The notes beneath the pieces were generated by a model, which worked only from the letters and a program-made list of their open reading frames with translations, did no database searches and was not told the DNA's origin. The position numbers were made by a program, and so were the translations under genes. Of a stretch of DNA of 64,000 bases, positions 22,979-64,000 are shown piece by piece. The DNA is from Buxus sempervirens (lineage: Eukaryota > Streptophyta > Magnoliopsida > Buxales > Buxaceae): contig OX387185.1 in assembly GCA_947561395.2 (NCBI GenBank), positions 46,262,602 to 46,326,601 on the forward strand, read 5' to 3'. Positions within the stretch are counted from its first letter, which is position 1. Every line of letters starts with the position of its first letter.

Positions 22979-24474
22979 TAGAGCTGTAAATTTGGCCCGG
23001 ACCGCCCGAAGCCCGTCCAACCCAGCCCGATTTAAGAAATAAGTTTGGGTTTGGGTTTGGGCCGGGCTCAATCTTGAGCCTGAAGTTGAGTTTGGGCTGG
23101 GCTAGCTCACAAGGTACAACCCGAAAAAACCCGAATAACCAAAAATATATATACCACTAAAAACCCTTCCTGCAAACCTCCATACGATTGTCTCCTGCAA
23201 ACCTAAAAGTTTCTCGTCTTCTCCCATATCTCTACCACAGAAGTTGGAATTACTCGCCCCTCTCACTAACTCACTGTCCCTCTCTTCTATTATCAATACC
23301 TCACATCTCAAAAACAACCTAGCTAGAGAAACCCCTAACAAATGAGCTCGATTGGCAATAGCTAGCAATATAGTTGCCGTTGGCGTTGCCATCAATACAG
23401 TGGGATACAGTTCCAGCAGCAAGGGATTTGCGATACATTTCTATCGCTCACAAGTCACAAGGGATTTGAGATTACTATTTTTGTCAAATCAGGCATTTCT
23501 CTTTAAATCGGGCATCTCATCTTTAAATTTTGTTCATTGCTTTAAGGTACAGTTTAATTCCTCTCTTTTCTAGTACTCGATCTAGATAAGATCCATTAAT
23601 GTGTGCTTGGGAGGGTTTGTTTCTCTTCCTCGGCTATGCACCATATAATCTAAAACTATATACCTACCTTTGACTACAAAGTTAGTTCAGATATTTCAAT
23701 CTCCATTGCTGGATGCAAAATTTCATTAAAATTTGATTTCCGATAAGGTAGTAAAACATAAAATCTTGTTACTTTAGTAGTATTTTATTTTATGTTATTT
23801 TTAACATCAATATATATCCCCTAAAATCTTGATTTATTGTTCTTGTTTGGTCATATGCAAATGAGTTATGTGTTTCTTATGTAATTTCGTGGTTCTAATA
23901 TTTGAAACGTAGATTCTAATTCAGCCAAAAAAAAAAAAATGTAGATTCTAAAGTAATTGGAAGAGATAGTAAACATGAATATTAAGTCTACTTAAAATTA
24001 CAAAAGTTGATTGATTTTGTAAAAAGTGTTATTTTTAGATTAAGGTTTGAATACTTAAACAATGTGAAAATGTAATGAAACTAATTCTGGAATTTCAAAT
24101 AGAGTAGGTCCTGTATGCAACATTGCACTTTTTGTGAAACAATGATTGAGTGGGAAATGTAGGGATGCGTTGCTAATCAAGTAATCATTTTCTATTTATT
24201 GTTTCTTTGAGAGTAGAGGATGCCTTGTTAGGATTAATTCTGCTACTGTATTTCTTAAGTCTTATATATGTGAATGTATCATTGTATCAAGTAGAAAAAA
24301 ACATTTGAGCTGGCCCGAACCCAACCCGAACTCAAGAAATAATTTTAGGGTTGGGTTTGGGCTCAAAGAGTTTGGGTTAGGGCGGGCCGACGAGAGTTTG
24401 GGTTCACCAATTTTAGTTAGGGTTGAGCCCGAACTCATTGAAACCCAGCCCAACCTGCTCTACTTACAGCTCTA
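22979..24474. mobile_element. Non-autonomous hAT-like element with GGGCCCG-word ends
   Basis: A 1496-bp insertion with 11-bp perfect terminal inverted repeats TAGAGCTGTAA / TTACAGCTCTA. It is flanked by ACCGGTAT (22971-22978) and GCCGGTAT (24475-24482), an 8-bp target duplication with one mismatch. TAG-type ends and 8-bp duplications are typical of hAT elements. About 130-170 bp inside each end consist of degenerate GCCCGAACCC/GGGTTTGGGC words in both orientations. The AT-rich middle has no transposase, so it would depend on another copy for movement. Confidence 0.8.
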
Positions 24475-24482
24475 GCCGGTAT

Positions 24483-26015
24483 CCCTCAATCCAGAAAATC
24501 TGGCTATGCTCAAACCATTTCCTTGACGAACTACTAAAGAGAAACATAAATAGTAAATATAAATAATGTAGACAGTGGTTGGTTTATAAATTTGGGAAAG
24601 CAATTATCTAGGTTGCTGTATCAACTTGTGAGGGTCTCAACTTGTGAGGGTCTTGATTAAATTACGAGATTGATGCAAGTGTATTTGATTTTGAAGATCA
24701 TGAGAATCCACGATGGTAGGTCATATTGAAGGATCAAATGTGTAATTTATCATTTTGTGCAACTGATTTTAGCCATTATATATTAATTATATAATTTATT
24801 ATTTGTATGGCTGCGACTGACGTATCCTATTTGAAAAATCAATTTTCTTTTATTTTCTTGACGCTAAAAATCTCTTGAATTACTGTAATAATCACAACAC
24901 AAATTACATGGTGCCATGAAGATATGCCTAGAATAAAAAACTTTTACTCCAATCATCGTGGAAGCGCATTCAAAAACTGGCCTAATTGAAACAAAGGGGT
25001 GGTCCCATCTTTTCTAGGTTCATCGATATTGAATCAATCGAACGCACTTCTAAGATTTGTTCCGGGTTTTGGATGACGACCCTGAGTTATATCATCAGAT
25101 CTTCGAAGATGAACTTGTTCCCTTGCAATAGTCTAGAATTCTTGACGGTATCGAGCTGGAACAACCTGTTCTTCCTGAATACATGGACAACTATGTGGAC
25201 CGATGGACTTGCTAGCCTTGATCGTTACAAAGGACAATGTGTGAATTTTCAAGTTCAACCAACCCATTTTCAGTAAGTGAATGAATAAGAATCTCGTTAA
25301 CCATTCTACTCCCCCTTGAGAATTCAGAATATTTTCGAGGAAACCAATTTAGCAAATTTGGCTGACAGTTTAGCAAATTTTGCTTTGGATCATTTTTCTT
25401 GTACATGGGGTTAACCCCCTAAACTTTCGTCGTCCTGCCTTACAGCAGACTTATGCGGTCGATGTTCCATTGGTTTTGTTCGTAAGTAATATATTTATAT
25501 TCTTGTTTACCAATAAATAAATAAATAAATAAGGTGATATCGACTTAACTTAGCTGATATCGGGCTTTGGGCTTGATTTTGAATGTGAGGCCCGAATATC
25601 GGTCCGGGCCGGGAAGCCCTATAGATCTTATGCATAAGCCCGGCCTGTATAAATGTTAGCCAACATCTTCTGCACTATTCCCGTACATTTATCCGTGCAC
25701 TCTCAGAGGGACCTGGAGCGGGTGCATCAAACTGTAAAATTGGTTAAAAATGGGCAATAATACCGTACTCACTTCTCAGGTTCCTAGAACTTTCAGTAGC
25801 CCAACAAAAAAATTCGAAACTGTCTTGTGCCACATGCTACGCCCACATAAAATTCACCGACGCGCTTTCTTCTCTTCGACCATTTCCATAAAAATTAAAG
25901 AACCAGCACCATCCGCTGCACATCTGTGACCATCCCAATTTGAATTTCACAAACCCTACTTCCTCCATAACCAAAATAAATCCTTTGTGCTTCTTCTCCT
26001 CCTCCTCCTGCTTCA
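24483..26015. other. Intergenic spacer before the calmodulin-like gene
   Basis: Mostly AT-rich. It contains an orphan coding-like stretch (about 25070-25215, see findings), an AATA microsatellite at 25512-25532, and a short GC-rich remnant at about 25550-25640 with GGGCTTGGGC/GGCCGGG words like those of the hAT ends at 22979-24474. A pyrimidine-rich leader (TTCTTCTCCTCCTCCTCC) immediately precedes the ATG at 26016. Confidence 0.5.
25512..25532 (+). repeat. (AATA)n microsatellite
   Basis: About five AATA units form a simple sequence repeat in the intergenic spacer. Confidence 0.85.
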
Positions 26016-26498
26016 ATGGCTTCTCTCCAATCCGACCAGCTGAAACAGCTGAAAGACATCTTCTCGCGCTTCGACATGGACTCGGACGGCAGCTTGACCC
26101 ATCTAGAGCTCGCAGCGCTCTTGCGCTCGCTCGGCCTCAAGCCCACAGGCGATCATATCCATTCCTTGTTAGCCAACATCGACTCCAACGGTAATGGCTC
26201 TGTGGAGTTCGAAGAACTACTGAACGCGATCCTCCCGGACATCAACGAGGACATTCTCATCAACCAAGAGCAGCTCCTCGAGGTTTTCCGGTCGTTTGAC
26301 CGTGATGGCAACGGCTACATCACGGCGGCCGAGCTCGCCGGATCAATGGCCAAAATGGGTCATCCATTAACGTATCGAGAGCTTACGGATATGATGCGAG
26401 AGGCTGATGCTGATGGAGATGGAGTCATTAGCTTTGACGAGTTCACCTCCATCATGGGCAGGTCCGCCGCTGATTTTCTCGGTCTCACCGTCTCCTAG
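26016..26498 (+). CDS. CML: Calmodulin-like protein with four EF-hands
   Basis: Intronless gene for a 160-residue calcium sensor. Four canonical EF-hand loops are visible, each with Asp at position 1, Gly at 6 and Glu at 12: 20-31 (DMDSDGSLTHLE), 56-67 (DSNGNGSVEFEE), 95-106 (DRDGNGYITAAE) and 131-142 (DADGDGVISFDE). All four should bind calcium. Length, lack of introns, the MASLQSDQLKQLKDIFSRFD start and the short hydrophobic tail DFLGLTV fit the plant CML15/16/18 group rather than true calmodulin (149 residues). It is probably cytosolic or nuclear and relays calcium signals to partner proteins. The gene is more GC-rich than its surroundings, as is common for intronless CMLs. It is convergent with the P4-ATPase gene downstream. 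Confidence 0.95.
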   Translation: MASLQSDQLKQLKDIFSRFDMDSDGSLTHLELAALLRSLGLKPTGDHIHSLLANIDSNGNGSVEFEELLNAILPDINEDILINQEQLLEVFRSFDRDGNGYITAAELAGSMAKMGHPLTYRELTDMMREADADGDGVISFDEFTSIMGRSAADFLGLTVS

Positions 26499-27694
26499 CT
26501 AGCCCTAACCGCCTCAGGAAGATAGTCGATCATGGCATCCCCGTCATTTACCATCAACATACATCATCACATCATTGTTACCATTACCATCATCTCTCTT
26601 CCAGAGTCCAGACTAATCCTCGTCGTAGTTTGACTTTGACTTTTGTGCTCCAGCTTTTCTTCAGTTTTTTAAATAGCTTTTCCACAAGTTGTATTTATTA
26701 ATTGAAAGAATAATTATTCAACCTTCAATTCCATGCTCAAAACCGCTCTTTTTTATCAGTTTTATTTATTTTTTGGGGGGTTTTGTTGCATATTACATCA
26801 GAACAATGAGGAATTCAAAATTGGAAAAAAAAAAGGAAAGAAGAAAAAACGAAACCTTCCCTTTTTATTCTTCTGGGGCTTTGTTGGATAGAATATGTTG
26901 TTATTCTACTTTTAATGGTTGTGATATCTGTCTGAATCATTTGCATGTGAGGGTTGAACATGTTCACTACAGATGCCTCCATCTATGGAATGGAACCCAT
27001 ACAATAAACTTACCTAATTGATTAAAGGAGATAAAACTATCCTGTGTTTGGCAGATGAAGCTAATGTGGATTGTTGATTGCTTGTGATTGTACAACTATA
27101 GTTTTATTTTCATAGTCTAGGTGGGGACATCCATGCCACCACCCATGTGATATGGTGCAGATTCCTCAATCAATCTGTCTGTACAGTGACCCACACAGTG
27201 ATACATGTCCCTGGAGAATCTCTAGTGGAGGCAAGGAGTGCATACTACATTCCAGTTGTTTGCTTGTGTAAGATGGAGCCTCTAATTACAGGAAGGTGGG
27301 TGCATTTTACATCAATAAAACAGAAAAGAGAAATACAAGGAATCCAATATCCAAAACTGGAATAAGTATTTACACTTAATTATTGAGTGAATTGCTGCAA
27401 TAATGCAACATGAATGAAATGATACCAGTTGTTTTGGGCTTTCTTTTGCCCATATAAAGATCTGCAGTACAACCCCATCTCTGAAGATCATCATCGCTCT
27501 TGGAGCCACAGCAGTAGTTAACCTATTGAAAAGTGTGGTTTTAAATGATTTTCCATGTGAAGCCTGTAAATAATCCTGTATCAAACCCCTCATAAACATT
27601 GCCCAGACTTGGCCTTCTAACAAATTGCCTCCACCAGTAATGATAATGATCCAATAGCTAACCATTTCAAGAAAATCTTCTTGTGAAATGTTTT
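26499..27694. other. Spacer between the convergent CML and P4-ATPase genes
   Basis: Contains the probable 3' UTRs of both genes. The short open frames present (such as 26689-27021) show no family features. No RNA gene or repeat of note was recognised. Confidence 0.5.
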
Positions 27695-35844: not shown

Positions 35845-35865
35845 AGAGAGAGAGAGAGAGAGAGA
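35845..35865 (+). repeat. (AG)n microsatellite, possible ALA 5' leader
   Basis: About ten AG units in a row. On the minus strand this is a CT tract about 1 kb upstream of the ALA start codon, a common feature of plant 5' leaders. Confidence 0.8.
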
Positions 35866-36225
35866 ATGAAGAATCTGCATCTTCAACTTCAAGATCAACA
35901 GATGCCGTGAAGGCGGGGAAGACAGGAATGCGTTGCACAGGAATGCGTTGCTTCGAAGCATTTGGTTTATGTAGCGAAAAACCCTTTGGTCTTTGCAGCT
36001 CGATTGACCGTAAGAGCTATCTGCTCCACCTGAAAAGAGACAAAAAAAAAAAAAAGGGAATTATTGAAGTGCTGGATTTATGCACTTGGAATGGCAGTTG
36101 AACTTTCGGAAGAAAGGAAGATGAGTCAAATGAGGAAGATAGAGTTGCGAAACAAGACATGTTAGGATTAAAAAGTCATAAAGCATAACAAATGACAATA
36201 CACAAAGTGGATTAGAGAGAGAGAG

Positions 36226-36281
36226 AGGGAGTATACAAGCTTTTGTTTTTTTTTTTTTGGTGAGAAGGGAGTATACAAGCT
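36226..36281 (-). mobile_element. Minimal poly(A) retroposon with 16-bp target duplication
   Basis: The 16-mer AGGGAGTATACAAGCT occurs at 36226-36241 and 36266-36281, flanking a 24-bp insert. The insert is mostly poly(T) on the plus strand, that is a short TTCTCACC head plus poly(A) on the minus strand. This looks like an extremely 5'-truncated LINE/SINE insertion made by target-primed reverse transcription. Simple slippage is less likely because the duplicated word is not itself repetitive. Confidence 0.6.
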
Positions 36282-36577
36282 GGAAGTTTATGTATAATTG
36301 CTAAAGAATCAAACGTAGTGGGTTTAACTTTGAGGACCCCACTATCTCAAAAGGCCAAAAAAACAACAAAGTACGACTCTTCTGAAGTGTAAGCAAAATA
36401 AAAATCTTCAAGAAAGAAGCTACCTGCCTTTCCCTCATTGAAGACAGTGGCAAAGAAGACAAAAAGCACTATCCAGTAGTTAGATTCCTAGAATATCTCT
36501 CGCTCTCTCTAAGAAACTACCCCTCCATGAAAAGTGACTCAAATATCATGCATCTCATGGTTTGGGAGGCTAGATCA

Positions 36578-37040
36578 GGGTTTTTAAAACCCAATTTTCA
36601 TAATTGGTTGGTACCGACCGAATCGGTCGATATTAGGGAAAATTAAATTTTAGTGGTGCTTTTTTAAATTATTTAAGATTCAGTTCCCAAAGTTTTGAGT
36701 TTTAACTTTTAATATAACTTTATGACAATATTTAATTTTTAGTACCATTTCATTATTATGAATAAATTCTTCCAAAAAATACTCTTATACGACTCATTCC
36801 CAAGGTTTGTACAAGTCAATAAAAGGACTTGTACCTTAAATAAGTGGTGTTAGGGTATAAATAGTGAAATAGTACTAAAAATTAAATATTTTAATAAAAA
36901 TATATTAAAAGTTAAAACTCAAAACTTTGAAGACGGAATCTTAAATATTTTAAAAAAGTGCTACTAAAAATTAATTTTCCCCATGATATACAGTCCTTAC
37001 ATATATTAAAAAGTACCGGTATCGGCCGAGATTAAAACCC
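36578..37040. mobile_element. Short element with GGGTTTTAA ends and CGGTCGATA words
   Basis: The ends GGGTTTTTAA (36578) and TTAAAACCC (37040) are inverted relatives. Inside them lie inverted words ACCGACCGAATCGGTCGATA (left) and ACCGGTATCGGCCGAGAT (right). Without the MITE nested within it the element is only about 116 bp. No target duplication was identified, so the boundaries are provisional. Confidence 0.45.
36636..36982. mobile_element. MITE with about 80-bp terminal inverted repeats
   Basis: Left arm 36636-36715 and right arm 36903-36982 are inverted copies at roughly 85-90% identity by eye, beginning GGGAAAATTAA and sharing AAAGTTTTGAGTTTTAACTT. Total length is 347 bp and there is no coding capacity. 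The target duplication is unclear. It is related to the relic at about 622-884. Confidence 0.8.
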
Positions 37041-37796
37041 ATGCTCATTCTTGAGATATGGGTCCTACGTTACTTTGTGTCTGGTACTCAAGAAAATTTT
37101 AGTTCATGGTCACATCATAGCTAACTATGGTGGCTGGCATCATTATGTTAGCCTCAGAATGGATGTGGATTCACCTCAACATCAATTGGGTACACCTCAT
37201 GTGGAATATGTTCTAATATTCAATCCAAAAGTAGTCCCTTTCATTAGGTGCTGTAAGATGGCATTTATTCAGCTTAATCAAATGCAGTTCAATAGTTCAT
37301 TCACTACAAAGACAAAAGGTTTAAATTGAAGAAAATTGAACCCAATAAGAAACCCCAAAAATTAAATCCACTCTCCCCTTATCTAAATGAGATATTTTTC
37401 GGCAATTATGCGTCTCAACTTCATCACTTAACCAACCAATTCACTTGAGAAACAAAGATTTGTTTGACACGTTCACCGGCGAGATGACTAAGACCCAAAT
37501 TTTGAATGCAGGAAACGATAACATTCACATAAAATATTAACAAGTACGATGATGGATTCATTACCAAATACCAATACAAAACATGCATTCCATCCTGAGT
37601 CAAAACGTTTTGGGGTTTCGAGTAACAAGCTCAAAACCAAAGTAAGAATCTCTTATCTTTCTGGAAAAGTTCCTTGTTAATGGGGGCCTTGACAGACATA
37701 CAGTAAGCAGTGTTAAAACCCATAGATCTTGAATGAACTTCCCATTCAGATTGAGAGCATCATGAGTCGTTTCCGAAAACACATTGAAACTTTATC

Positions 37797-40700: not shown

Positions 40701-43700
40701 AAAGTAAAATTTTATGGAGAGTAGAAATATGTTGCTTACAAGTGATGCAGGTTTTGTAAATGTGTCTGAAAGATTATATTGGAGCTGAATGGCATCAGCT
40801 GAAGCAGCTGGTAAGCTGGACTCCTTGGAGCTTCTTTCCAAAGGCCTCTCCCCTAAAATTCTACCACGGCTCTCTGCAGTCAACTTTTGCACACTTGGAA
40901 TAGATTTTGTATCCATTTGCTGCTTTTTCTGATCACTACGCTTCTGCTGTTCCTCCCACAGCTTTCTAGTGTAATATTCATGGCCACTTCCTCCAGTTAG
41001 AAAACAAAATAATTGATTTGCCTTATTCTTCTCTCTGGAGAGATCCTCAAATAATTTACCACAGCGAGCAACCAAACTTGCAAATCCTTCAATCAAGAGT
41101 TTCAGATTATTATCCTCCGGAGGAGGAACCTCAGGAGGAGGATCTGCCAGCTTATATTCAGTCTCAAGAGGAGAAGGAAATTTGTGATAGGGTTCAAAGC
41201 CCACTGGAATAACAGGAGGCTCAAATCTGGATAAGGATCAACCAAATAACAGTGATAACTCTATAAAACCAAAAAAATTAAGCCATTAAGATAGGAGAAA
41301 AAGGACAGATACTTATTGCATGCAAGTAAAAATGGATGATTAAATTTGAGTAACCACGATTATCAACTACCTTTCCAACTGGTAATCAGCATTTGATGCA
41401 ACTTTAAATCCAGGCAAAACCCCCTGTTCATTTTTTAACAACTTTTTGTCACTGTTACTGCTCAATCTTTGAGGTTCGTCAATTTCTTGAACATAAGTCT
41501 CTTCCAAGTGAAATCCTGAATAACAAGTTGCCCTTTAAGAAAGAAGAACTAGACCACTGATATGACGTTTATATCAAATGACAACTAGATCATCTAAATA
41601 AAAACAAAAGCCAACCAGAATGGATCACCTAAATTAAACTACTATTTAGCCATTTTCATTCAATATCACAAATGATCTTATTGATACCTAAGTGAACAGT
41701 TCATAAAACAGCATACGAGGGGCCTGTTCAAGAAGCCATTTTATGCTTTAAGGCCTCCAACTGAAACTATCTGAGACATCCCATTATCCTATAACCAATA
41801 ACCGTATTATTTTTTTTCAATTTCATAAAAAAAATTGTAATTTTTTAGAAAATGTTCAACAGAGTCCTTTCTATTTCTCAAGCATCCTTAAACCTTGGAT
41901 TGTTAAATTCATAAAATATGCAAAGATTTTGTCATATTAAAAATCCTCGACAATCCAATTAACTAATACATAGTTCTGTATTCCTCTACTTTTCAAGCAC
42001 TTTGATACATAGATTTTTAAGTTCATAAAACTTACAATGATGTACATATATTAGAAGCTTCTATCCTCTAATTAACACTCATAGAGATACATACATTATC
42101 ACCTCAAGTGAGAAAGAGATAGGGTATAAAGTCACATAGAGTGGGATTCAAAATCCATAGTATTGCATCCTAATAAACTATTTAACTTATTGATCAAAAA
42201 ATAAGAATAAACTATTTTTTTTTAATCAGTAAGCAAGTGTATTATATATATGATAAAGTAGAGTACAGGTACACAAAAAGTGTACCAGGACAGCCAGGTA
42301 ACTACATATCTAGCTTAGGGAGCCCTCTAGGACAGGGATGAAGTCATACAATCGAATCACACCTTTTCTTCTAACTCCTGAAAATTATTACATAACAGAA
42401 AATCCTCAATAGGTATGTTAGCCGCTTGACCTATAAACCAACCGTGCATTATCCTCAAGGTAGCTCTCTCTAAAACTATTCCACTGCTCTCGGAATTCCT
42501 AAAGATTCTCTTGTTCCTTTCGCCCCATATTACCCAAGCAATTACTGTGGGGGCTAAGTTCCAACATATGTCTCTATATGACTTCTTTTTTCTCCAACCC
42601 CAAGCTTCTAGAGCTTGTCTAAAGTCCTTTGGATGTACCCACACTACTTGTAGCCTTTGGCATATGCATCCCCATAGCCTTGCAATTCCTTTACAGTGAA
42701 TTAGTAAGTGGCTTACACTTTCTTCCTCCTCCTTACATATGATGCACCTATTTGCAAGCTGCCAACCTCTATGCTTCAAATGATCCACAGTTAGCAATTT
42801 ATCAAGTGCAGTAATCCACAAGAAAAATGCCACTTTACTTGGAATTTTGTTTGCCCAAATATCTTTAGACACCTTCACCTCCAGATTTGAACAATGTAAG
42901 TGATCAAAGGCCTCCTTTACTGAAAACAGCCCAGATTTGCTTTGTGTCCATATTCTTTTATCTTCTCCTTGTCCCACAGTCCTATTGTACAATTCATTCA
43001 CTAATGCTTCATAGCTGGTAACTTCCCAATCCATCAAATTTCTCCTTAGGTTGATGTTCCACACAATTCCAGCCTCTGAACTCGTTAAACATTCACAAAC
43101 CGAAACTTGATTATTCTTGCATATGTTGTAGATCGTGGGGTATCTCACCTTCAGTTTAGTCTCACCACACCAAACATCCTCCCAAAATCTGACTTTCAAG
43201 CCATTGCCCACCTTGTATTTGCAATCCTTCTCCACTGATCTCATTAATTTACTAATGGGTCTCCATAGACTTAAACCGAAAGACTAATTTGAAGGAGTTG
43301 GAAACCAATCTCCAGGAGTAGAACCATACTTCTGCTTTAAGATTTCTCTCTAGATATTCCCACTCTCGCATCCGAACCTCCAAATCCATTTTTGGAGGAG
43401 GGCTCTATTAAACAGCGATAAAGGTCTAAAGCCCAAGTCCCCCTTCCTTCTTTGGCTTACAAACCTGATTCCATGCAACTAAGTGATACTTGGCTTCTCC
43501 TCCCACACCCTCCCACAAAAAGTTCCTTTGGATTTGTTCCATCTTCTTTGCCACAGATTTAGGCATCTTTAAAATAGACATATAAAAAGCCGGAAGACTT
43601 GCTAGTACACTCTTGATCAATGTCAATTTACCTCCTTTTGAGAGGGTACAACTCTTCCATGATGCAAGTCTTCTTTCCATATTTTCTATGACTGGGTTCC

Positions 43701-46700
43701 AAGTAGTAGACTTCTTATAGGCAGCACCCAAAGGAATCCCAAGGTATAAGGTTGGGAATTTGCCTATTTTGCATCCTAGACCCCGACATAAGCTAGGCAT
43801 GTTCTCCACCTTCCCTATTTCAAACATCTTATATTTGGTTAAGTTGATTTTTAACCCAATACATGCTTCAAAACACAAAAGAATGCCTCTTAGCCACATA
43901 ATCTAAGAGTGGGTTGGCTTGCAAAAGGTTAAAATATCATCGGCAAACAAAAGGTGGTTGATGGATATAGATCTTCCAAATGTCACCCCTTCCAACATAC
44001 CTCCTTGTGAAGCTCCTAAAATCATCCTACTGAAGACTTCCATAATTATGGTGAATAAGAGAGGAGACAAGGAGTCTCCTTGACGTAAACCCTTTGAACT
44101 CTTGAAGAAACCAGCTGCCTTACCATTGACAAGAAAAGAGCTAGTGGTTGATGAAATACACGAGTAAATCCAATTCTTCCACTTCTCAACAAAGCCCATA
44201 CGATCAAGCATATATATCAAGAATTCCCAATTCACATTATCATACGCCTTCTGAAGGTCAAGCTTACACATGATCATGTTCTCCTTACGCTTCATACACG
44301 AGTTGATGCATTCACTAGCCACTAACACTCCATCCTGTAACTGCCTTCCTCCAACAAAAGCCCCTTGAGATTTAGAAATTAAGTGTTGTAGCATTGGTCG
44401 CATTCTATTGGCTAGCAACTTTGCTATTATCTTGTAAACACTTCCCACCAAACTTATTGGTCTAAACTCACTCAATTTGTACGTTCCTTCCTTCTTCAGG
44501 ATCAACACAATGAATGGGGCATTCATGCTTCTAAAAAATCTTCCACTCTTGTGAAACTCTTCAATAGTTGCCATTAGGTCATCTTTTAAAATCTTCCAAC
44601 ATGCCTTGAAGAATGCCAATGGATAACCATCCGACCTTGGTGCCTTGTCACTATTAAGTTGCCATATGACTCCTTTAACTTCCTCCTCTGAAAATGGCTT
44701 TTCCAATTCATCTCTACCTTCCTCCAATAATTTGTTAAACTCTAATCCATCAACTCTTGGCCTAAAGCTGGCCTCCTCTTTGTATAGCTTTGAAAAAAAT
44801 TCTGGTATCTTCATTCTAATGTCCACTTTCCCTTCATAGACAATCCCTTCGATCTATATCTTAGAGATAGAATTTACCCTTGTCATTGCATTTGCCATTT
44901 TATGGAAAAACTTGGTATTCTAGTCTCCTTCTTTCAACCATAGTACTCTTGATTTTTGTCTCCAAAATATCTCTGTTCTTCTAGCCCATGATCTGAATTC
45001 CACTTTGGTTCTTTCCCTTTTCACCCACTCCTTAAGATTTAGAGTCTCTTCTTCTTCTTGCTTGTCCAGCTCCTTGATTTGCTTTAAGAAGCCTTCCAAT
45101 CGATCGTCCACCTTCCCGAACTCCTTATTCCATATCTTAATTTTGCTTTTCAATAACTTCAGCTTTCTGTCCAAAACATAACTTGGGGCACCAACCACCT
45201 GAAAATCAGCCCACCAACTCTCCACCCTTTTAGTAAACTCCTCATCTTGCAGCCACATGTTCTCAAAGTGGAATGGGGCAGCTCTCTTGATCTCGTTATT
45301 GCAACATAAAATCAGTGGAGTATGATCAGATGTGGGTCTTGGCATTACTTCAACACATAGGTCTGAAAATAGATTTTCCCAATTACTCGACACTAAAAAT
45401 CTATCTTAGACATAGCAGGCCGTGACTGATTGCTTGACCATGTATACTTAGCACCTTTCAAAGGGATATCTACCAGATTTAAGCTATTGATGAAGTCTAA
45501 AAAACCTTTCATAGCTGTAGAAAAGTTCTTGCACCCTTTCCTTTCTGAAGGATATCTAATCACGTTGAAATCCCCGCCAATACTCCGTGGTAGATAAATG
45601 GTTCAAAGTATCGTATCGACGTGCCGTATCGGACGATCCAAAAATGGAAACGTATCGAGGATACGCACGGATACGCATGGATACGCACGGATACGCACTA
45701 AAACGGTGGATACGCATAAAAGATGGTGGATACATGAAACAAAACATATCTTGATAGAAAGATAAGTAAAAAATATGACAAATAAACATGTTTCTGACAT
45801 CATAGGTCTACACAAAGAATATTTATGTATTATGGAAACAAATCAACATATATGCAAAAAGACTTTAAGAAATTTAATAAAAAATAAATAAAAGCCATAA
45901 TATGCTAAATAAACAAATAAATAGAGTAAGAAAGGTTATTGTGCATACCAATTTAAAATTTAATATTAGAGTAATAATTATGATATATTATTATTAATAA
46001 TTTCAAGGAATATATTCTTAATAATAAATGTATATATACGTGTTTGTAAATAATAAAAAAATATTTTTTACAATTATGTATGTAGATTAAATATAATTAT
46101 CTAATACTATATTATATATGTGTGTACATAAGAATAAAATTTGTATAACTTTTTACCACTCAAATATTTTTTTGTATGTAAAATATAATTTTCTAATATT
46201 ATATATATATATACATACATATTTATAATTTTTCAATTTATATATTTATAATTAATTTTATCTTTATATATAAAATATAGCATTTAATATAGAAAACATT
46301 TTTATAAATTTTATTCAAGTTGACTTGTATAGAAAACATTTTTATAAGTTGATGTCTTCTCCTTCCAAAAAAAATAAAATTCAAGTCGACTGGCGACTCC
46401 GATTCGAGGGAGGAAACAGAGGTGGCGACGGCGGCAAAACCAGGTACGCCACCCATCCCTCTGCTCTCTCGCTCTCTCTCCCTCTGTTACTCTCGCTCTC
46501 CCTCTGTCACTCTCGCTCTCTCTCCCTCCCTCTGTTACGCTCTCTCTCCCTCCCTCTGTTACTCTCGCTCTCCCTCTGTCACTCTCGCTCTCTCTCCCTC
46601 CCTCTGTTACGCTCTCTCTCCCTCCCTCTGTTACGCTCTCTCTCCCTCCCTCTGTTACTCTCGCTCTCCCTCTGTCACTCTCGCTCTCTCTCCCTCCCTC

Positions 46701-49700
46701 TGTTACGCTCTCTCTCCCTCCCTCTGTTACTCTCGCTCTCCCTCTGTCACTCTCGCTCTCTCTCCCTCCCTCTGTTACGCTCTCTCTCCCTCTCTTTCTC
46801 TCGCTGTCTCTCGCTCTCTCTCTCGTTCCCTTTCTCTCGCTGTAGCTTGCTCTCTCCCTGTCTCTAGCTCTTTCTCTCTCCCTCTCTGTCTCTCGCTCTC
46901 TCTCGTTCCCTTTCTCTCCCTCTCGCTCTCGCTCGCTCTCTCTCGTTCTCTGTCTCTCGATCTCCCTCTCTGTCTCTTGCTCTCTCTCACTCTCTGTCTC
47001 TCGATCTCCCTTTCTGTCTCTTGCTCTCTCTTGCTCTCCCTCCCTTTCTCTCGTTCTCTTTCCCTCGCTCTATCTCTCTTTCTCAGTCTCTCGCTCTCTA
47101 TCGTTCGAGATACAGGTCGAGACGACCTGTACTCGAAACTGTATGGTGTTTCGTGCCGTTAGGCACGATACACGAAACGTATCGCGCGATACGCGCGATA
47201 CGGCACGATAATTTAAACCCTGAATTGCAACTCTGTCTGGCCACCACCAGTTCCTCCCATAAGATTGGGAGGGAGGAGTCTGAACAGGGGCCATACACAT
47301 TACTAACAAGGACCAGTGTTTTCAGTTTCGGCAGCACGCCACTGAAATTTCGATATTTTTCCCCCAGCGATGCGTTTCGCTAGAGGAAATTGCCAAGGAT
47401 GTTTCCCTGGCGAGATTTTGACAACACTTTTTTTTTTACTCTTTTTTCCCCTCGCGCGCGTGCGAGAGAAATATAAGGAGGTGTCGCTCAATTTGGGGCG
47501 AAATTTTGCCCAAATCGAGCGACGACATTACAGAGAAGGGAGAAACCTCCCCAACTTCAAATCTTTTGCCAAATCCGCCTGATTCAAGCTCAAATCAGTC
47601 CTATTATCATCACTCTACTTAATAGAAGTGATTTGAGAGAGATTTGTGTTAATTTAGAAGAGATTGAAGCGCTTTTACACATCTCATGTTTGGTAACGAG
47701 AAGGTAAACTCGTTTTTTTTTCATTTAGATTGATCAAAAGTTCATAGAATGGTTTGATTATTTGACATGAGCTAGGAACACTATCCATTCTACTATCCTC
47801 AGCAGCTTGGGCCAGCAGATTCATCGGATAATAGTAGTTACGGTACTTCATATGGATATCCTAGAGCATACATGCAAACATCTGATCCATTTGGGATCTT
47901 TCCAGTGAACCCATATCCGTACGGTTATTATGCTATGTCTATACCTACTCAAGCTGTAGCCCCTCCATACGAGCATCCTGGTTATCCTACGCCGTTTACT
48001 CCATCACCACCACAGCCAGAGCCAGATCGTTGCTACTACTATTCTGATTTCCTTCCAGTTGGTATCATAGCACACATGACACAGGAAGAGTATGAGCAGC
48101 ATGTCCGTTCATATCAGAGAGAGTATAGATTTCGGATGGGATGGAAACGTTACTGCCACTTTATTGACGAGAGAGCAGGGTTTGAGCCTTGCCATTCATT
48201 TCAGTACTGATTTGGCGGTATGATTGTATGTTTTTTACTCTTTATATTGTTGTTTCAGTTTAATTTAAAATTTGGATCCTATTTGTCATTTTGATTTATG
48301 CACAGCCCACAGCATCACCCCGATCATTACATTTACATGTCACATTGCGTTTACATGATTTTTTAAAGTATATAACTGCTACTTGTAGTAATTTCAGTAC
48401 AATTATACATGCAAATGCAATTATTTTACATATTATTATTGTAAATCATTGATTTTGGGACTAAACGAGGGCAAAAAAATTTCAGCAGCAAGCCCAGATT
48501 CACTGGAAAATCATTTTTCCAGTGAATGTCGGTACCGAAACTCAAAATCTTGACAAGGACTGATACTGCCAATTTCAAGATGAGGAAAGAGGCTGAAATT
48601 GAATACATCTTGATCCAACATTGACATAGCTTCATAACACCACTTTTCTAGGCCAATATTCTACCTCCCGATTTACCTCTCGATGGTAAGAACAGCCATC
48701 CGATTCTATCGTACTCCCATAAGCTTCTTATAATACATCTGTCTACTAACTCTATTTTAGATTCCTGGAGCATAACAATATCTGGTTTCCATACTCTTAG
48801 TAATGTCCTCACAGCATCCTTCTTCTCTACTGCGTTCAAGCCTCTTATGTGCCACGATAATATCTTAAGCTTCATCAAGACATGCAGGTCCCCTCTTGCC
48901 TTTCTTCCTACAACTGCTAGATATATCCTTCACTGACCAGGTTAGTTTCTGAAGCTCCTTCTCTGTTTTCCTATTTACCTCCTTCATTTTAGAGCTATGA
49001 GCTTCAATAACAGTGAATAAAGCCATGGCTTCTTTCTCAAATCCTTCAAAAGAAACTCCCAGAAATTTGCTCATCAAACTTATCTTATTTAGCAGCTCAA
49101 CTGGCTCATCTTTCTCCTTGTTAAAGCCTAATATTCACTCATTAGACTGAGTGTCCCACTGCTGATCTCTGGAAGGGCTTTTATCTTGAGAGATAGGATC
49201 GTCCTCTTCGGGATTTAAAATTTGAAGAGGAGGAATATTCTCACACTGGATAACCATGTGGGAACCACCTTCATATTGCCTTGTTTCTGCTACATAATCA
49301 GCAGGCTGTTCTTGGGCATCCAATTAAATTTGGTGGGTATCATCTTCCACACCACTATCCATTCTCCACTCCTTGGTCCCATCTGTTTCTACAGGAATCC
49401 CATCTCCTTCTACCTGATTTCTGACCATCAAGGTCCTTTCAGAAACACCGCCAGGAATTAGTTGACTGTGGATGTCATAGGACCTTCTTGCATGGCTCTT
49501 CTCATGATTATGGGCGTCAACCGACAGCTGCTGAAAAGAATCGGAGGTGAATTGAACTTCTTCTATGTCTGATTCCATGCGCACATGAGCTGGGTAGTCT
49601 CCAACTTCGCATGTCAACCCTCGAGATATGGTGCAGCTAATCTCCGAAACTCTTCCATCCTCCGCCTCCGAGTTTGGATTCCATAGCATTTCTACAGACT

Positions 49701-52700
49701 GTACCATTGGGTTGCAAACGTTAGAATCTCCTTTCGTCAATACTATCACGTTACCCTGTGATCTTTCCCTTTCCCGATGAAGTTCGCATTCCGTGTCTTT
49801 TTCCTGCAGCAAACTTCTCATTTCGTCATCCTCGTCAACCTCCCGTGGTCTTCGAACCAAATCAGATCCAGGCATAACAGCATTAGGTGGATTCAATCCA
49901 CCAATCTGTGGAGACAATCCATTATTAGTTTGTCCGTGGGCTTGGCTATGGGCCATCTCTGAACAGCTCCTGAGGTACAAAGTATGACCCATATCTAAGT
50001 TTAGATGGGGTCGGCCTGGAGACCTGATCGAACCGCGATTTTGAATTACAAATTCACCTGCTCCTGGACCTGCAGCATGATCTCCTGACATAGCAGGTCT
50101 GCCCTGCCCGGCCTACCTATAGCCGCCGCCATCGGCATGACCACTGCTACGCTGACTTCCATTCTACCTCCTTCCCTTCTATTAGCCACGTCAGCAGCTC
50201 CTTCTTCAGCAAAAAGACTGCTCCACCTCTTCACCCATTGCTGCCTGACTTCTGGCACCGGCGATATTAATGTTTCAAAGAACAATGAGCCATCCCACAG
50301 GCATACCAACCTGGGAATCCTTCATAAAAGCTGCTCCCTAACTAACATGCTTACCCGACAAAGCTCATTCTGCAATATGTCGATTCCACCCACCTTCAGC
50401 AGCCCGCCACCCATATCTCCAATGAGGATCAGGGTCAAACGCCCCAATAGATACAATGGGATACCTTCGATTTTAATCCATGTAGCACCAACAGAAAATC
50501 CCCGACACTTCTTCCACCTTCAAGCTGTAATCGATGAAAGAGCACGCTTCCTTTCCTCCCCAATCTTGCATCCTTCATATTGATCAATCTCCTAGAGTCA
50601 TTCACTGATTGAGGAAATAGAACTGCTTTCTTCGGAGATAGCTTCGAAATGGAACAAGAAATGCCAAAATCTTTTTGTAATTTCGACAGCACCTCCAACC
50701 AGCTTAACTCAGAGAAGAATTGTTGGCAAATCACCGCCAAGCTCCATTTATCATTTATCGGGCATAAACCGATAACAAGCGACCATCCCTGATTTTGGAT
50801 TTCCCCCATTACTCCATTAGACCTCACAAGCTCGTCCACCGGTGATTCATTTACATCTCTGTTTCGATCATCGCCAGATAACTGCTTTCCTTTACCTCCT
50901 ACATGTGCTTCGCTCCTTAGGACCTTCTTCAAGTCCTTCCATAAGTAATTCCAGTCACTTGATTCGTTATCCATGGGGAATATTAAACTTCTGGTCCTGC
51001 CTTTCCAAAACAAGGATAATTGAATAAACCAACCCCACTCATTGGATTTCCTCCCCAGAACGAGCTTCCTTTCCCTAAAGCGCCTACTGCTGATCACTTC
51101 GTAGCAGAGGCTCCCTCCAGAGTCTCTCAGATCCAGCTCAGTCATCCATTTAATTTCATCCCCCTAGAAAATCAACCACCTAGTACGTTCGCCTGAGCTT
51201 ACCGTTATACGAACATCTTTGCACACCGACTTATATATCCCTCCACCACAATCAATTTCCGTTGGATTCTCGTGGGACTTCATGACCCCACCTATTGACA
51301 TCATTGTCTCCGCAGCTCCACGCGCAAACCCAACGCCTCCTCCAACGATTCCAAAGGAAGTTGACACAGGGTCGACACAAATGACACTCAAAGTGCCGAC
51401 GATAGAACCAACCTTCACACGCCGACTGTCCAGTCCGACCGTCCCTTCTCACCGACTTACCAGTGCTATCACGTCACCTTCGCACACCGGCGCACGGCAC
51501 CTACCTTTTGCACTGTGTCACGATCGCCCAAACACACCGTCGCACAATGAACAGCACCGACCTCCTCCTGCTTCGTCACTGACGAACAGCGTCGGCGTCG
51601 CCCTTCGCACACCTTCAATGTCACTCACCTTCGTTGAACAGGGTCACCTACAAGTGAACAGGGTCACCTTCACTCGCCTTCGTCAAACAGGGTCACCTTC
51701 AACGTCACTCGCCTTCGTCGAACAGGGGACCCTGTTAACTTGGTGTATGATAATACTTATATATTCTAATAATATTGTTTACCAAAATTATCACTACTAT
51801 TATAAATATCCAGCAAGAAAACCTCAACTGCTTTTCATGTGATTTTAAGCATGCTAACTATAGATGAAATTATTTCAATAGTGAGACTTCATCATTATTC
51901 TTCCCAAAAAATCAGAAAATGGGACAGCGTATCAGACTAGAGAAGATTAGAAGACAGTTGTCAAGACTTTCTCGAAAAATAGATCATGTTAGTGGTTACA
52001 TATTTTTGTCCCCAAATAATTGCATACTGTTAAGTAGGGCATGGGAAGTCGTTTGACCACCTTTTTCTCCAATGCGACATTACTCATGTAGTATGAGAGT
52101 AATAATTACACATGGTTGAAATTGCAAGATGATGCTCTCAGGCATAAAGCAACAGAGATCAGAATTCTTAGGCAAAAAAGGGAAGATCGGCCTTTATCCC
52201 TTGTGATTCTGTTGATACTTTGGATGGGAATAACTGGAGTACACACTCAATTATGGACTCTAGCTTTTTCTAGGGGCTTTTTCAACCATGATTGACCCTG
52301 AGCTCAAGGTCGTGTCAAAGTCCAAGATTGGACAATCATTGCATGTCCCACTCACTTTAACATGGGCAGGAACTTTTTGGAAGGTTCTAAAGGAAGGAAC
52401 CACCAAACTCAACTTCTGTGGGGTGAATACTCCTTGGACAAATTAGGGCCGCCAAGGACAAAAGGAATTTTGTGAGATAATGATATTGTGCTTATCCTTT
52501 GTGGTTTTTCAAGGTCCATTGAGGCAGGAAATGCGATTTGTGCTGAAATTTTTGTGATGGTCTGCCATCAAGGAGGCTAGATATCAAGACTGTTGTTTAT
52601 TAAATGTGGATGGTGTCTCGACACTAACAATGTATTGGCTTGCTTCTACCTCATATGCCCTTTAGAGCCCTATGGATCTTGCTAGATTGGCTCGATGTTT

Positions 52701-55700
52701 GACAAATGGGATAAATATCACATTCAATCATGTGCCATAATCAGGTAACAAGTTACCATACAAGCTGGCTAGGATTGACCAGGATAGAAGTGTTCTTTTT
52801 TGGGTTAACTATAAAGAATATGTTATAGGATGAGAGACTATTTTTTGGCCCTCAAACTGCATATATACACGTCAGTAAAAATTTATCAGTAAATCATGTG
52901 CACAGGAGTGTGTGTGTGTCTGTGTGTCATTATATCATTTTCTATAAATAACATTCTATAGGGAAAAAGTTGCACAACCAAGAGGGAACACAATCATTGG
53001 ATGAATAGTTGATAGACTGAGAACAAAAAGTGGAACTGCCATGAAAAATAAGGTTAAAAATGAGCATGTTAAAGAGACCCAATGTATCTATCTCTTATAG
53101 GTGATGAAATAGAGTTGCTCATGATATCTGGACACACTAAAAATAGTCCACTCACAGCTCAAGTGAGAAGTTAGTTGGTGCAAGTTAAAAACATCAAATG
53201 AGCAAAAAGGCTAAAGATGAGGAAACGGAAGAAAAAGGCTAAAGATGATGTTGAAAGAGTAGATGAACAATACCAAAAAAAAATTATGTAACTCAAGAAA
53301 TGGCTCTTCAGATAGAAATTAAATAAAATAAGCAGATAAATATATAGTATATATACACACATAGTGAAGGAGAGAGGATGGAGGGGAGGAAAATGTCTTC
53401 CAGGCCAGGCAAGATATTGCTCCTTAGGTTATCATGCTGCTGTAGTGCATTATCAGTTTTGTCCTCACCAAAAAAAAATTGCAACCAAGAAGGCAAGTGC
53501 CACAGTACCATATGAAAATATCACATTTAACAGGTCTATGTATTATATCACACGATTCAAAACAAATCTTATGAGAAAATAAATCAGCACATTTGATGCA
53601 CGGTTCTTCCATTCACTTTTGGCATGATCTTTTGTGGAGCAGCGAGGCTTTATCACTTATATTCCCACGTATCTTTTCCCTTGCACGCCAACCTAATGAT
53701 TCTGTGTCTGATATCCTATCTTGATCCTCAGTTGGCTTATTCTGGAATTTGCAGTTTTATAGAGACCCAAGGCCGGCCAAGATAGAGGAGATAACCTCCC
53801 TTCTTGACTGCCTTAAAGAGATATCTCTTTATCATTCTAGTCCCAATAGAGTCGTTTGGTCCCTCCCCATTCCCTTCTGGGTCATTTTCTTGTAAATCTT
53901 TCTTTTTTATCTATTGTCCAGGTAGCCTGATTCTCCTCCTTCCAAGTTTGTTTCTCATTTATGGAAGCCTAGACAACCTCCAAAAGGAGAGGTCACATGA
54001 TCTATAGCTTAATGTTTAGGCGGTGGTGTAGCACATGTGGTTAGAGAGGAACCAAAGAATATTTCAGGACAGGCGGGCCAGCACCAAGTATGTGGTTGAG
54101 TCCATTCTAGTAGTGGTTGCCTCATGCATTTCAGTTCGATCAGAGTTTTGAGGATTGGGTATATCAGAGATTATTAGGGACCGGCACGGATGTTGCTTCT
54201 CTTCCCCCGACTATACTAGTTTTGCTAGTTTTGCTGTATCAGTTGGCACAGATGTTGCTTCTCTTGGTTAGTTTTTGCTATATCTGTTGGCTATATAAGA
54301 GATTATTAGGTTTGTAGTGCATGGTGTGGATTTTTTGCCAGATTTTTGCTTATATGTAGCTATACATGTGGTCCCCACATCTCATGGATCCACTGTCCTG
54401 TTTGTACTATCCTTTTCCTCTAAGATTTATTTATTATTCTTTATTACCCATAAAAAAAATAAAAAAGAGCAAATGCAATGCATTATCTAACTAACAGAGC
54501 AGTTTCTTCCACAAGGCATTAATCATATAAACATATCACCATGGTTTAAATTTCGCCAAAACTTCACGAAATTTTTCCCAAATTCTCTCTTTGGAAGATA
54601 TCAAAATTTTACTTGCATCAATATTTCCCCTACCTTTAATTTTTTTTTTTAATCTTTTAAATGGGATGTTCATGGGAAACATCCCGATATTTCTGTCGAT
54701 AACATTTCCTTATTCCAAAAGTGCAAAATTTTTGTCAAAATTGAAATTCAAAAGCATGATATTACTGCTGTAGCGTATCCAAAAAAAGTTCCCAAGTCCA
54801 CATGTGCAGTGGATAAATCATTAAGCCTCATGATTGGTAACTTTAATTCCAAATGACACTATGACAGCACTACTTACCAGGGGCATAGATATCCTCATCT
54901 TCAATGTCAAGTTCTTCAAGAGCTCCAATGCCAAAACCAGGAGCAACTTTTCCTGCTATAAAATTAAAAGGAGTTAAATTAATCCAAGAATTTCAAAACA
55001 AACTAATTTCCATGCAAGTTTCAGAAATCCAACAATTAGAAATATTACAATATGAAAATTTTAGAGAAAGATGACTTGTATAAATACAGTGAGATAATAG
55101 ATCTTACACTTGAATCCAAACTGATTATCTTGCACTAAACCAGATTTTCTATCTCCTGCTTCTTTATGGCCAGATACACGTAACCTTTTCTTTTCTGGGA
55201 AACAGACCAAATATTCAGATGAACTAATCCTTGAAGCAGATAGCAGCCATTACTGACTTTATTTGAGAATCTACTGACCTCTAAACTCGGGAGCATTCTT
55301 GTAAGGATCATAACCTAAACCATGCAAGTCCTGCTTAGGGTTGAGTACATAAACCTGAAATGTAGAAGTAATAAGAAGAGGCTTTCTCTTTGTCAACCAG
55401 AACAATGAACAATTCCAAAGATTTATTTAGCAATCACAATGTAAACTTATGGCAAAGTAGCATAAATAGAACAATCCAATCTGAAGATTAAAAAAAAGAT
55501 ATATTCCCACACTTCATTAGCAAAAGGGAAAAAATAAATGAATAAATCAAATGTCAATAAGAAATATAAATGAGCATGAAGATAACAGATAAAAAACCGT
55601 GAAGCCTAACAGACTGCAATAAAGGAGTAAGCAATTGAACCTCAGTCAGTTTACTAAAGCAGACAAGTACATGATGTGTACTTCAAAGAAATAAGAGTGT

Positions 55701-62700: not shown

Positions 62701-63089
62701 CTAGATGATCAGAAGATATAAAATATCTAGTATGTATAAGAGCGATGTTGGAGCTTGGGAAGAAAGGAAACAAAATTTCTGTTGATGACATGTACCCTCT
62801 CTCATCTATGTCTAGAAATGCAAGATACAATGGAACCAACAAATTTCAGAGGATTCCACCAATTTCATGTAGATTTTAACCGGAATGGTGTGCCACTCTG
62901 CTGGTCAATATGTGGGGTATCCGAACTCCCCATGGAACCTAGTGGGTTCCATTTGAACAGCCTCCAGCACCGGCAACTACACATTATTTTACATTATATG
63001 ACTGGGTATGTGATATCAAAAGCATGTTTATTTCTTCTCTTTTTAAGCTTATCTTTGAATTCAGGTGCGTCTTATTTTAATATGGCTAT

Positions 63090-63372
63090 GATGAGGAACC
63101 TAATCGTGGTTAAATATGGCTATGATGAGGCAAGGTGGTTCCCAAATCAGGTGAATGGTAGAATTGGATGCAACTTATGGAGGCCTATATGCAGATTGTC
63201 TCCTTTGGTTGAGGCAGGAGTTAAGTTTCAGGTGGGAAGGGGAGATAGGGTCAGGTTTTGGTCGGATCCTTGGTGTTCTAGTGGGGTTCTTAAGGATCAA
63301 TACCCTATGTTATATAGCATATCCACATCCCCACAAGCCTTTGTTGCAGACCTGTATTCCCAAGGAGTGGGA
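63090..63372 (+). pseudogene. LINE ORF2 fragment upstream of zf-RVT
   Basis: Plus-strand frame containing LWRPICRLSPLVEAGVKFQV and RGDRVRFWSDPWCS followed by LKDQYPMLYSI, the conserved GRGDRVRFW.D.W block of plant LINE ORF2. It is cut off at about 63380 by the following element. Non-functional. Confidence 0.75.
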
Positions 63373-63384
63373 GGCATAGTTATT

Positions 63385-64000
63385 AAAGGCGGTCACCTAG
63401 GCGACCAGGCGTTCCAACAAGGTTCAGGCGTGGTGTCGCCTAGGTGACCTGTGCCTAGGCGACATAGGCGATAACCTGGGCAAGAAGGCGACCGCCTGTT
63501 CACCTGGGTGAGCAAACATGAAGATAAAAAAAAAAGTGTTTCCCTCAACGCATGTCTTCGTCGAGCTTCATCAACACGCAAGAGACAAGCTTCGTCGAGC
63601 CTCTCCTCCATCGTCAGCTCTCGCTCTCTCTTTCTCTGTCGCTCCCTCTCTTTCTCGCTCTCTCGCTCTCTCTTTCTCCTCTGTCTCTCTTTCTTTCTTC
63701 TCCTCTCCTCTGTCTTTCTGTTTCTCTGTCGCTCTCTCTCTCTCTTCTTCTCCAATCTCTCACTCTTTTTTCTTTTTCTTTTTTTCTCTTCTTCATCGAG
63801 CTTCGGTCCAGTCGCTTAGTTCTTCTCCAACGAACTGAGCGACTGGATCGACTCTCCTCTCTCGCTCTCTCTTTCTCTCTCTCGCTCTTTCTCTATCCTA
63901 GAAAATTTGAGTGGTTACGTGAGAACAAGGAAACAGGGCCTGTATTTTTATTAGTTGTTATTGTTCTTTTTAAAGTGCACAATATTTAGGTCTTTTTGAT
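63385..64000. mobile_element. Element with GGCGACC-word end and CT-rich core (runs off the window)
   Basis: It starts where the LINE fragment stops, TTATTAAAGGCGGTCACC. The first 130 bp are degenerate GGCGACC/GGTCGCC/CCTAGGCG words in both orientations. A CT-rich tract follows at about 63610-63900, with a hairpin at about 63805-63845 whose 16-bp arms (TCCAGTCGCTTAGTTC and its near-perfect inverse) enclose a 9-base loop. The right end is outside the window. The plan closely resembles the element at 45600-47220. Confidence 0.6.

What the first reader, a model, noticed from the sequence alone, without database searches (positions are those of the whole stretch)
22979..64000. Several DNA elements share one plan: ends built from a short degenerate word, a different word in each
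Seen directly: the element at 22979-24474 has GCCCGAACCC words, 45600-47220 has GTATCG, 63385-64000 has GGCGACC/CCTAGGCG, 36578-37040 has CGGTCGATA, and a remnant at 54541-54740 has AAATTTCG. In each, a word of 6-10 bp is repeated imperfectly in both orientations for 60-170 bp just inside the end, around an AT-rich or CT-rich core without a transposase. Known: hAT and some other elements have subterminal repeats that bind transposase. Inference: these may be one superfamily whose binding word has diverged with its transposase, a coevolving set of 'word locks'. I do not know a published description that unites them.
Basis: partly seen in the sequence, partly recalled or inferred. Interest (0 to 1): 0.72.

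Follow-up and report, generated by a model that had tools for sequence, protein, structure and literature searches.

The report
Plant hAT transposons with private end-words
Most of the odd word-studded elements in this plant DNA are ordinary jumping genes of the hAT type, which share one short end sequence but each carry their own repeated word next to it, most likely the tag that their own enzyme recognises.

Summary
The word runs are real at three of the five places (22979, 45600, 63385), and these three are hAT transposons. I reached the window's genome (676.5 Mb, unnamed; by its genes a plant) and examined copies: perfect 8-bp target duplications flank 25 of 29 copies of the 22979 family, 17 of 23 of the 45600 family and 8 of 10 of the 63385 family. 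The words recur at nearly every copy's ends and are almost absent from cores. The 63385 element spans 63375-64137. A sixth element, 47314-48552 (8/8 duplication), sits in a LINE whose frame continues when it is removed; a longer relative carries a hAT dimerisation domain. 54541 is probably an old hAT element (6/8). 36578 stays unproven, and its core is a separate nested inverted repeat. Between families the first 11 bp are alike, while hexamer content inside is not (0.06, against 0.21-0.63 between the two ends of one element): a shared cap and a private word. That hAT enzymes bind subterminal motifs that differ between families is published, so these are new members of a known kind. Whether word and transposase co-diverged was not tested: the genome server did not answer the search that it needed.

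The parts
22979..24474 (.). Non-autonomous hAT element, ends TAGAGCTGTAA.., word run CCCGAA/AACCCA/AGCCCG; 8-bp target duplication at 22971-22978 and 24475-24482 (7/8)
   Evidence: 25 of 29 copies with 8/8 duplication; CCCGAA in 53 and AACCCA in 56 of 56 ends (one of the 28 elements, L039, was mis-assigned)
45597..47222 (.). Non-autonomous hAT element, ends CATGGTTCAAAGTATCG / CAGGGTTTAAATTATCG in copies (the window copy starts AATGG), word GTATCG/GATACG; the window copy lacks a clear target duplication (3/8)
   Evidence: 17 of 23 copies with 8/8 duplication, 3 with 7/8; words in 41 and 42 of 42 ends of 21 copies, 1 and 2 occurrences in all their cores
47314..48552 (+). hAT deletion derivative, ends CAGTGTTTTCAGTTTCGG / CAAGATTTTGAGTTTCGG; duplication ACAAGGAC at 47306-47313 and 48553-48560 (8/8)
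   Evidence: duplication; LINE frame continues when flanks are joined; 40 scored places, the window copy included
47776..48207 (+). Probable 3' exon of a hAT transposase kept inside 47314-48552
   Evidence: similar reading frames in L061 lie downstream of a frame with PF05699 (similarity seen by eye); no Pfam hit of its own
54541..54758 (.). Old, short hAT-like element, ends (C)ATGGTTTAAATTTCG / CATGCTTTTGAATTTC; duplication ATATCACC / ATATTACT (6/8)
   Evidence: 9 genome matches, six of which (itself included) end at its last or last but one base; relative L072 also 6/8
63375..64000 (.). Left 626 bp of a 763-bp hAT element that ends at 64137 (in L059); ends CATAGTTATTAAAGGCG / CATAGTTGTGAAAACGCC; word CCTAGGCG/GGCGACC; duplication GTGGGAGG (8/8), left copy at 63367-63374
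   Evidence: 8 of 10 copies with 8/8 duplication; CTAGGC, CGCCTA and CCTAGG in 20 of 20 ends, 0 in cores; LINE frame continues across the joined site
36576..37043 (.). Putative hAT-like element, ends CAGGGTTTTTAAAACCC / CATGGGTTTTAATCTCGG, word TCGGYCGATA; membership unproven
   Evidence: no convincing target duplication; genome search did not complete
36636..36981 (.). Nested inverted-repeat element inside 36576-37043, not part of the word plan
   Evidence: arms of 122 bp, 88% complementary

Best explanation
These are non-autonomous hAT transposons of several families in one plant genome. Each end has two layers: a terminal cap of about 11 bp starting CA or TA, mostly with G at position 5 (hAT type), and inside it 60-170 bp studded with a family-specific word in both orientations. 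Shown: hAT-type 8-bp duplications, caps, recurrence of words at the ends of copies, and hAT-domain genes in the same genome, one beside a matching end (L061) and one inside a complete word-ended element of another family (L076). Inferred: a hAT transposase supplied in trans binds the words through its N-terminal BED finger, several copies giving cooperative loading, while the catalytic part acts on the common cap; the word decides which enzyme moves which element.
For: 8-bp duplications: 17 of 23 (45600), 25 of 29 (22979), 8 of 10 (63375) copies at 8/8, the window copy of 47314 at 8/8. Empty sites: the LINE reading frame continues across two insertions when one duplication copy is kept. Words: 41 and 42 of 42 ends, 1 and 2 occurrences in all cores for 45600; 20 of 20 ends and 0 in cores for 63375; 53 and 56 of 56 ends for 22979. 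Cap: between-family identity in bp 1-11 is 0.549 against 0.248 expected for the four window families whose ends are fixed by a duplication (0/2000 shuffles). Private word: hexamer similarity of the two ends of one element is 0.21-0.63, between families 0.055 on average. Enzyme link: L061, with a right end like that of 47314, has Dimer_Tnp_hAT E=1.1e-5. L076 is a 3523-bp element with 8/8 duplication, CGTGCC 16 times in its ends and 6 in its core, CGGCAC 13 and 1, and an open 696-aa frame with zf-BED, hAT-like RNase H and Dimer_Tnp_hAT. Mechanism from print: Hermes BED fingers bind subterminal repeats (PMC10368747, passages); Ac transposase binds AAACGG repeats (PMC3260210, passages); Herves binds CG/AATTCAT (PMC3143072, passages).
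Against: Binding was not tested. The transposases that serve the 22979, 45600 and 63375 families were not found. Within families the word columns are not better conserved than other end columns in 5 of 6 end alignments. The window copy of 45600 lacks a duplication, and 36578 has none that is convincing. L061's left end was not found in 9.5 kb and its gene is broken up. In print, words are not the whole story: some Ds1 elements without the Ac hexamers still move, while Ds-like elements with them did not (PMC3260210), and mutating inner BED sites of Hermes left about 70% activity (PMC10368747). In L076 another word-like hexamer, CGGGCC, is as frequent in the core (15) as in the ends (13), though the core is far longer.
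Confidence: 0.8

Rival explanations
1. The words are by-products: short inverted and direct duplications arising near ends during gap repair, copied along with the element, with no role in recognition.
For: Words are not more conserved than neighbouring end columns in 5 of 6 end alignments; the left end of 45600 holds a plain tandem run (GGATACGCAC at 45659-45698).
Against: Three families show the same layout, words at both ends of nearly all copies examined and nearly absent from cores; [quoted passage not shown]
Confidence: 0.15
2. The five places are unrelated: different superfamilies (CACTA and others also carry subterminal repeats) or local satellites.
For: 36578 and the window copy of 45600 lack a clear duplication; 36578 and 54541 word counts are weak.
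Against: 8-bp duplications in copies of three families and at 47314; CACTA would give 3 bp and Mutator 9 bp (table in PMC4423477, passage); caps alike beyond shuffles.
Confidence: 0.04
3. The caps are shared and the words private because each family was founded by a separate old hAT lineage, with no continuing co-divergence of word and enzyme. This is compatible with the best explanation and rivals only the novel reading.
For: 22979 (TAGAGCTGTAAG) and L076 (TAGGCATGAGC) differ in cap from the CANNGTT group; the hAT-domain frames read in this genome are diverse.
Against: Five families share a CANNGTT-like cap at 0.67 between-family identity, though two of the five had their ends set by eye; 47314 and 54541 have the most alike hexamers of the 15 family pairs (0.17), as gradual drift would give.
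Confidence: 0.45

Closest known systems
Ac/Ds of maize (hAT)
   Same: 8-bp duplication, 11-bp inverted ends, cooperatively bound AAACGG subterminal hexamers, many derivatives (PMC3260210, passages)
   Different: Different words and caps; here several families with different words sit in one 64-kb window
nDart/Dart of rice (hAT)
   Same: Non-autonomous hAT sharing ends and similar subterminal sequence with its putative autonomous partner (PMC4423477, passage); a TAGAG-type end is recalled, not checked
   Different: The partner of 22979 is not identified; words of nDart were not compared
Herves, Hermes and Tol2 (animal hAT)
   Same: Family-specific subterminal motifs bound by transposase, in Hermes by BED fingers (PMC3143072 and PMC10368747, passages)
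   Different: Animal elements; binding shown there, only inferred here
CGGBP proteins derived from hAT
   Same: Diverse 8-mer specificities of hAT BED-type domains; the four hAT proteins that gave motifs have matches in the subterminal regions of their elements (PMC8097297)
   Different: Proteins of animals and a fungus in the parts read; that work starts from proteins, this from DNA ends

Membership tests
hAT superfamily (22979, 45600, 63375, 47314) | 8-bp target site duplication | tested here: met
   25/29, 17/23, 8/10 copies at 8/8; for 47314 only the window copy was tested, 8/8
hAT superfamily (22979, 45600, 63375, 47314) | Short inverted ends of the form YANNGNNNNR (consensus recalled) | tested here: met
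   first two letters fit at 8 of 8 ends, G at position 5 at 7 of 8, purine at position 10 at 6 of 8
hAT superfamily (47314) | Relative encoding a transposase with hAT dimerisation domain next to a matching end | tested here: met
   L061, one of three frames scanned has PF05699 (E=1.1e-5), right end 2 mismatches in 22; left end not found
hAT superfamily (22979, 45600, 63375) | Autonomous partner with matching ends | not tested
   the DUF659 search (PF04937) did not complete; of 150 listed PF05699 places I fetched 6
hAT superfamily (54541) | 8-bp target site duplication | tested here: inconclusive
   6/8 in the window copy and 6/8 in L072; no paired end in the four other matches fetched; three further matches not fetched
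hAT superfamily (36578) | 8-bp target site duplication | tested here: inconclusive
   the best candidates lie off the ends and are of a chance kind; copies not retrieved
CACTA or Mutator (22979, 45600, 63375) | 3-bp or 9-bp duplication | tested here: not met
   8-bp duplications; lengths from the table in PMC4423477
Word as transposase binding site | Binding by the cognate transposase | not testable with these tools
   needs protein-DNA assays

The most novel reading that the evidence does not exclude
One plant genome hosts a set of six or more hAT families with a common catalytic cap and mutually exclusive recognition words, each paired with its own BED finger: an evolved set of orthogonal transposase-DNA codes, in which changing the word is how a lineage escapes cross-mobilisation by its relatives.
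Probability: 0.3. Interest if true: 0.6.

Novelty: new member of a known kind. Interest (0 to 1): 0.36.

Why it matters
If the words are the binding sites, this genome gives many natural word and enzyme pairs side by side, three of the families with ten or more copies already seen here. That would let one derive a recognition code for BED fingers from sequence and test how transposon families stop moving each other. As found it mainly clarifies annotation: several non-autonomous families whose ends look like satellites are hAT elements.

Tried and rejected
Own-word shuffles are biased because the words were picked by eye, so I added a word-free scan. A generic duplication-plus-end scan of the window gave 8 pairs, within the range of 20 shuffles (2-9); only 22979 reached 11 of 12 end matches; 63375 runs off the edge and others have mutated ends. 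Pairwise end alignments alone were too weak to prove kinship (1 of 55 pairs at p<=0.005). Searching papers for end sequences as text listed 25 of 251 papers, whose titles looked unrelated and whose hits were to CCTAGGCG alone. Searches for an earlier account (2 of 2 listed; 20 of 50; 15 of 1066; 3 of 3; 12 of 20) listed family-by-family work and no paper that by title or abstract start unites such plant families; this covers only the open-licence library and the listed part. Excess conservation of words within families was tested and not found in 5 of 6 end alignments; the exception is the right end of 45600, 5 of 137 shifts. The fall of letter-by-letter identity inside the cap is no proof of different words, since the two ends of one element fall as far (0.267 at bp 23-45); I therefore compared hexamers. 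Ends of the transposase loci L077 and L078 were not found in the fetched DNA, and L079-L081 gave no pair or only low-scoring ones; these may be longer elements or domesticated genes. A transposase tree against a word tree was not built, because the genome server did not answer the search needed.
Full report
WHAT WAS CLAIMED. Five stretches of the window were said to share one plan: a 6-10 bp word, different in each, repeated imperfectly in both orientations just inside the ends of an element that has no transposase.

THE WORDS. Against 500 dinucleotide shuffles the words at 22979, 45600 and 63385 were never matched (0/500 at each end tested; the right end of 63385 lies outside the window); 36578 (13/500, 4/500) and 54541 (11/500, 86/500) are weak. 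A scan that picks no word (2130 windows of 120 bp, 146 of them scored against 40 shuffles each) put its four strongest inverted-word peaks at 24301, 63391, 51631 and 47131. The left end of 45600 did not stand out in that scan, probably because its repeats are mostly direct.

THE GENOME. The window lies in a 676.5-Mb genome held without a name. It looks like a flowering plant from its genes (recalled: a PERK-like kinase, a P4-type ATPase, LINEs). The 45600 element gave 1780 first-look candidates (40 scored), 22979 gave 1555 (40), 63375 gave 418 (40), 47314 gave 837 (40), 54541 gave 9 (9). These are loose candidates, not copy numbers.

hAT IDENTITY. For 45600 I examined 23 of the 40 scored places: 17 have 8/8 target duplications, 3 have 7/8, and 3 fail, the window copy among them (two of the failures, L017 and L026, were left out). 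For 22979, 30 of 40 scored places were fetched; L039 was mis-assigned and dropped; of 29, 25 have 8/8, 3 have 7/8 (the window copy among them) and 1 has 6/8. For 63375, of 10 of the 40 scored places (8 fetched, L060 and the window copy), 8 have 8/8, one 7/8 and one 1/8. The window's own 63375 element continues to 64137 and is flanked by GTGGGAGG on both sides; joining the flanks with one copy kept lets the LINE frame run on as ..QGVGGIQWNLHFRRGMFDWEL, up to a stop just beyond, in line with the LINE at 42357-43283. Eight base pairs is the hAT length; the table in PMC4423477 (passage) gives 3 for CACTA and 9 for Mutator.

A SIXTH ELEMENT. At 47314-48552, 91 bp from the 45600 element and inside the same LINE, lies an element with an 8/8 duplication ACAAGGAC; joining the flanks gives ..[18 protein letters not shown].. 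in one frame (the LINE itself has stops elsewhere). All 39 other scored places match from query 455-495 onward, and one of them also at 102-355. One of them, L061, has a hAT dimerisation domain (E=1.1e-5, in one of three frames scanned) upstream of the matching right end, and between the two lie frames similar by eye to window frame 47776-48207. I read the window element as a deletion derivative of a hAT gene. L061's gene is broken up and its left end was not found.

THE WEAKER TWO. 54541-54758 has ends (C)ATGGTTTAAATTTCG / CATGCTTTTGAATTTC and a duplication of 6/8; six of the nine genome matches, the element itself included, end at query positions 217-218, and L072 is a 199-bp relative with hAT-like ends and also 6/8; four other fetched matches gave no paired ends. 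It is probably an old hAT element. 36576-37043 has hAT-like ends by eye only; its core is another element with 122-bp arms, and its genome search did not complete.

WORDS IN COPIES. In 21 copies of 45600 the hexamers CGTATC and CGATAC occur in 41 and 42 of 42 ends (163 and 180 times) and once and twice in all cores. In 10 copies of 63375, CTAGGC and CGCCTA occur in 20 of 20 ends and never in cores. In 22979, AACCCA is in 56 of 56 and CCCGAA in 53 of 56 ends, none in cores; that set of 28 includes the mis-assigned L039, leaves out L033 and L034 (too many end mismatches), and its empty-word row is an artefact of L039. The word runs are therefore parts of these families, not local satellites. Copies of 47314 and 36578 were not tested for words.

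CAP AND WORD. Comparing ends letter by letter between the four window families whose ends are fixed by duplications, identity is 0.549 in bp 1-11 (shuffle mean 0.248, 0/2000), 0.367 in bp 12-22 and 0.225 in bp 23-45, which is background. With all seven families, including two whose ends I set by eye, the values are 0.541, 0.313 and 0.247. This shows the cap. It does not by itself show different words, because the two ends of one element also fall to 0.267 at bp 23-45. Hexamer content does: between the two ends of one element, cap left out, similarity is 0.508 (22979), 0.257 (45600), 0.208 (47314), 0.465 (63375), 0.248 (54541) and 0.628 (L076), while the mean over the 15 family pairs is 0.055 (36578 not included). 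The most alike pairs are 47314 with 54541 (0.17) and 22979 with L076 (0.128). So ends share a terminal cap and mostly carry private words, with a hint that two words are related. Where the cap meets the word, the first word copy often begins at once.

AN AUTONOMOUS EXAMPLE. PF05699 gave 2045 candidates, of which 150 were scored and all pass the cut-off; about four dozen of the 150 rows show a 696-aa open frame (my count). One of them, L076, is a 3523-bp element with 8/8 duplication CCAACCAT, a different cap (TAGGCATGAGC / TAGGGGTGCGC, 8 of 11), word runs CGTGCC/CGGCAC (16 and 13 in the ends, 6 and 1 in the much longer core; CGGGCC 13 and 15), and zf-BED, hAT-like RNase H and dimerisation domains. 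It shows the same plan on an element that encodes its enzyme, with yet another word. I fetched only 6 of 150 places, and for the other five found no convincing ends.

MECHANISM. In print, Hermes BED fingers bind subterminal repeats and several protomers engage one end; Ac transposase binds AAACGG repeats cooperatively; Herves binds CG/AATTCAT, and its authors say that such regions differ between hATs, ensuring specificity (passages of PMC10368747, PMC3260210 and PMC3143072). PMC8097297 (two of three parts read) finds diverse specificities of hAT-type domains, with matches in the subterminal parts of the elements concerned. By this analogy the words here are binding arrays for BED fingers and the cap is the catalytic end. 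This step is inferred.

AGAINST. Word columns are not more conserved than other end columns within families in 5 of 6 alignments; no partner enzyme is known for 22979, 45600 or 63375; there are no binding data. In print some Ds1 elements without hexamers move and Ds-like elements with them did not (PMC3260210), and mutating inner BED sites of Hermes kept about 70% of activity (PMC10368747). That word and enzyme co-diverged is untested, because the DUF659 search needed for it did not complete.

VERDICT. The principle is published, so this is a group of new members of a known kind, with a neat cap-plus-word layout that makes this genome a good place to test a BED-finger code.

Noticed in passing
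36636-36981: Nested inverted-repeat element (arms 122 bp, 88% complementary) that forms the AT-rich core of the 36578 element.
   Followed up: partly
621-1991: A 700-bp direct duplication (85%: 644-1298 and 1293-1991), each unit holding an inverted-repeat element (621-946 and about 1299-1568).
   Followed up: no
42357-51750: A LINE on the minus strand (zf-RVT and RVT_1 domains at 42357-44850; its extent to 51750 is inferred) into which two hAT elements of different word families inserted 91 bp apart.
   Followed up: partly
51610-51727: Direct repeats around GAACAGGGTCACCTTCA beside the LINE's reading frames, the third strongest peak in the unbiased word scan.
   Followed up: no
L076: A seemingly young, abundant autonomous hAT family: about four dozen of 150 listed domain hits show a 696-aa open frame.
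   Followed up: partly
45659-45698: The left end of 45600 holds a four-unit tandem repeat GGATACGCAC; the number of units differs among the three other copies printed.
   Followed up: no
25531-25650: A short run with GATATCGGGC, GGCCCG and GGGCCGGG words and no recognisable ends; may be a remnant of another such element.
   Followed up: no
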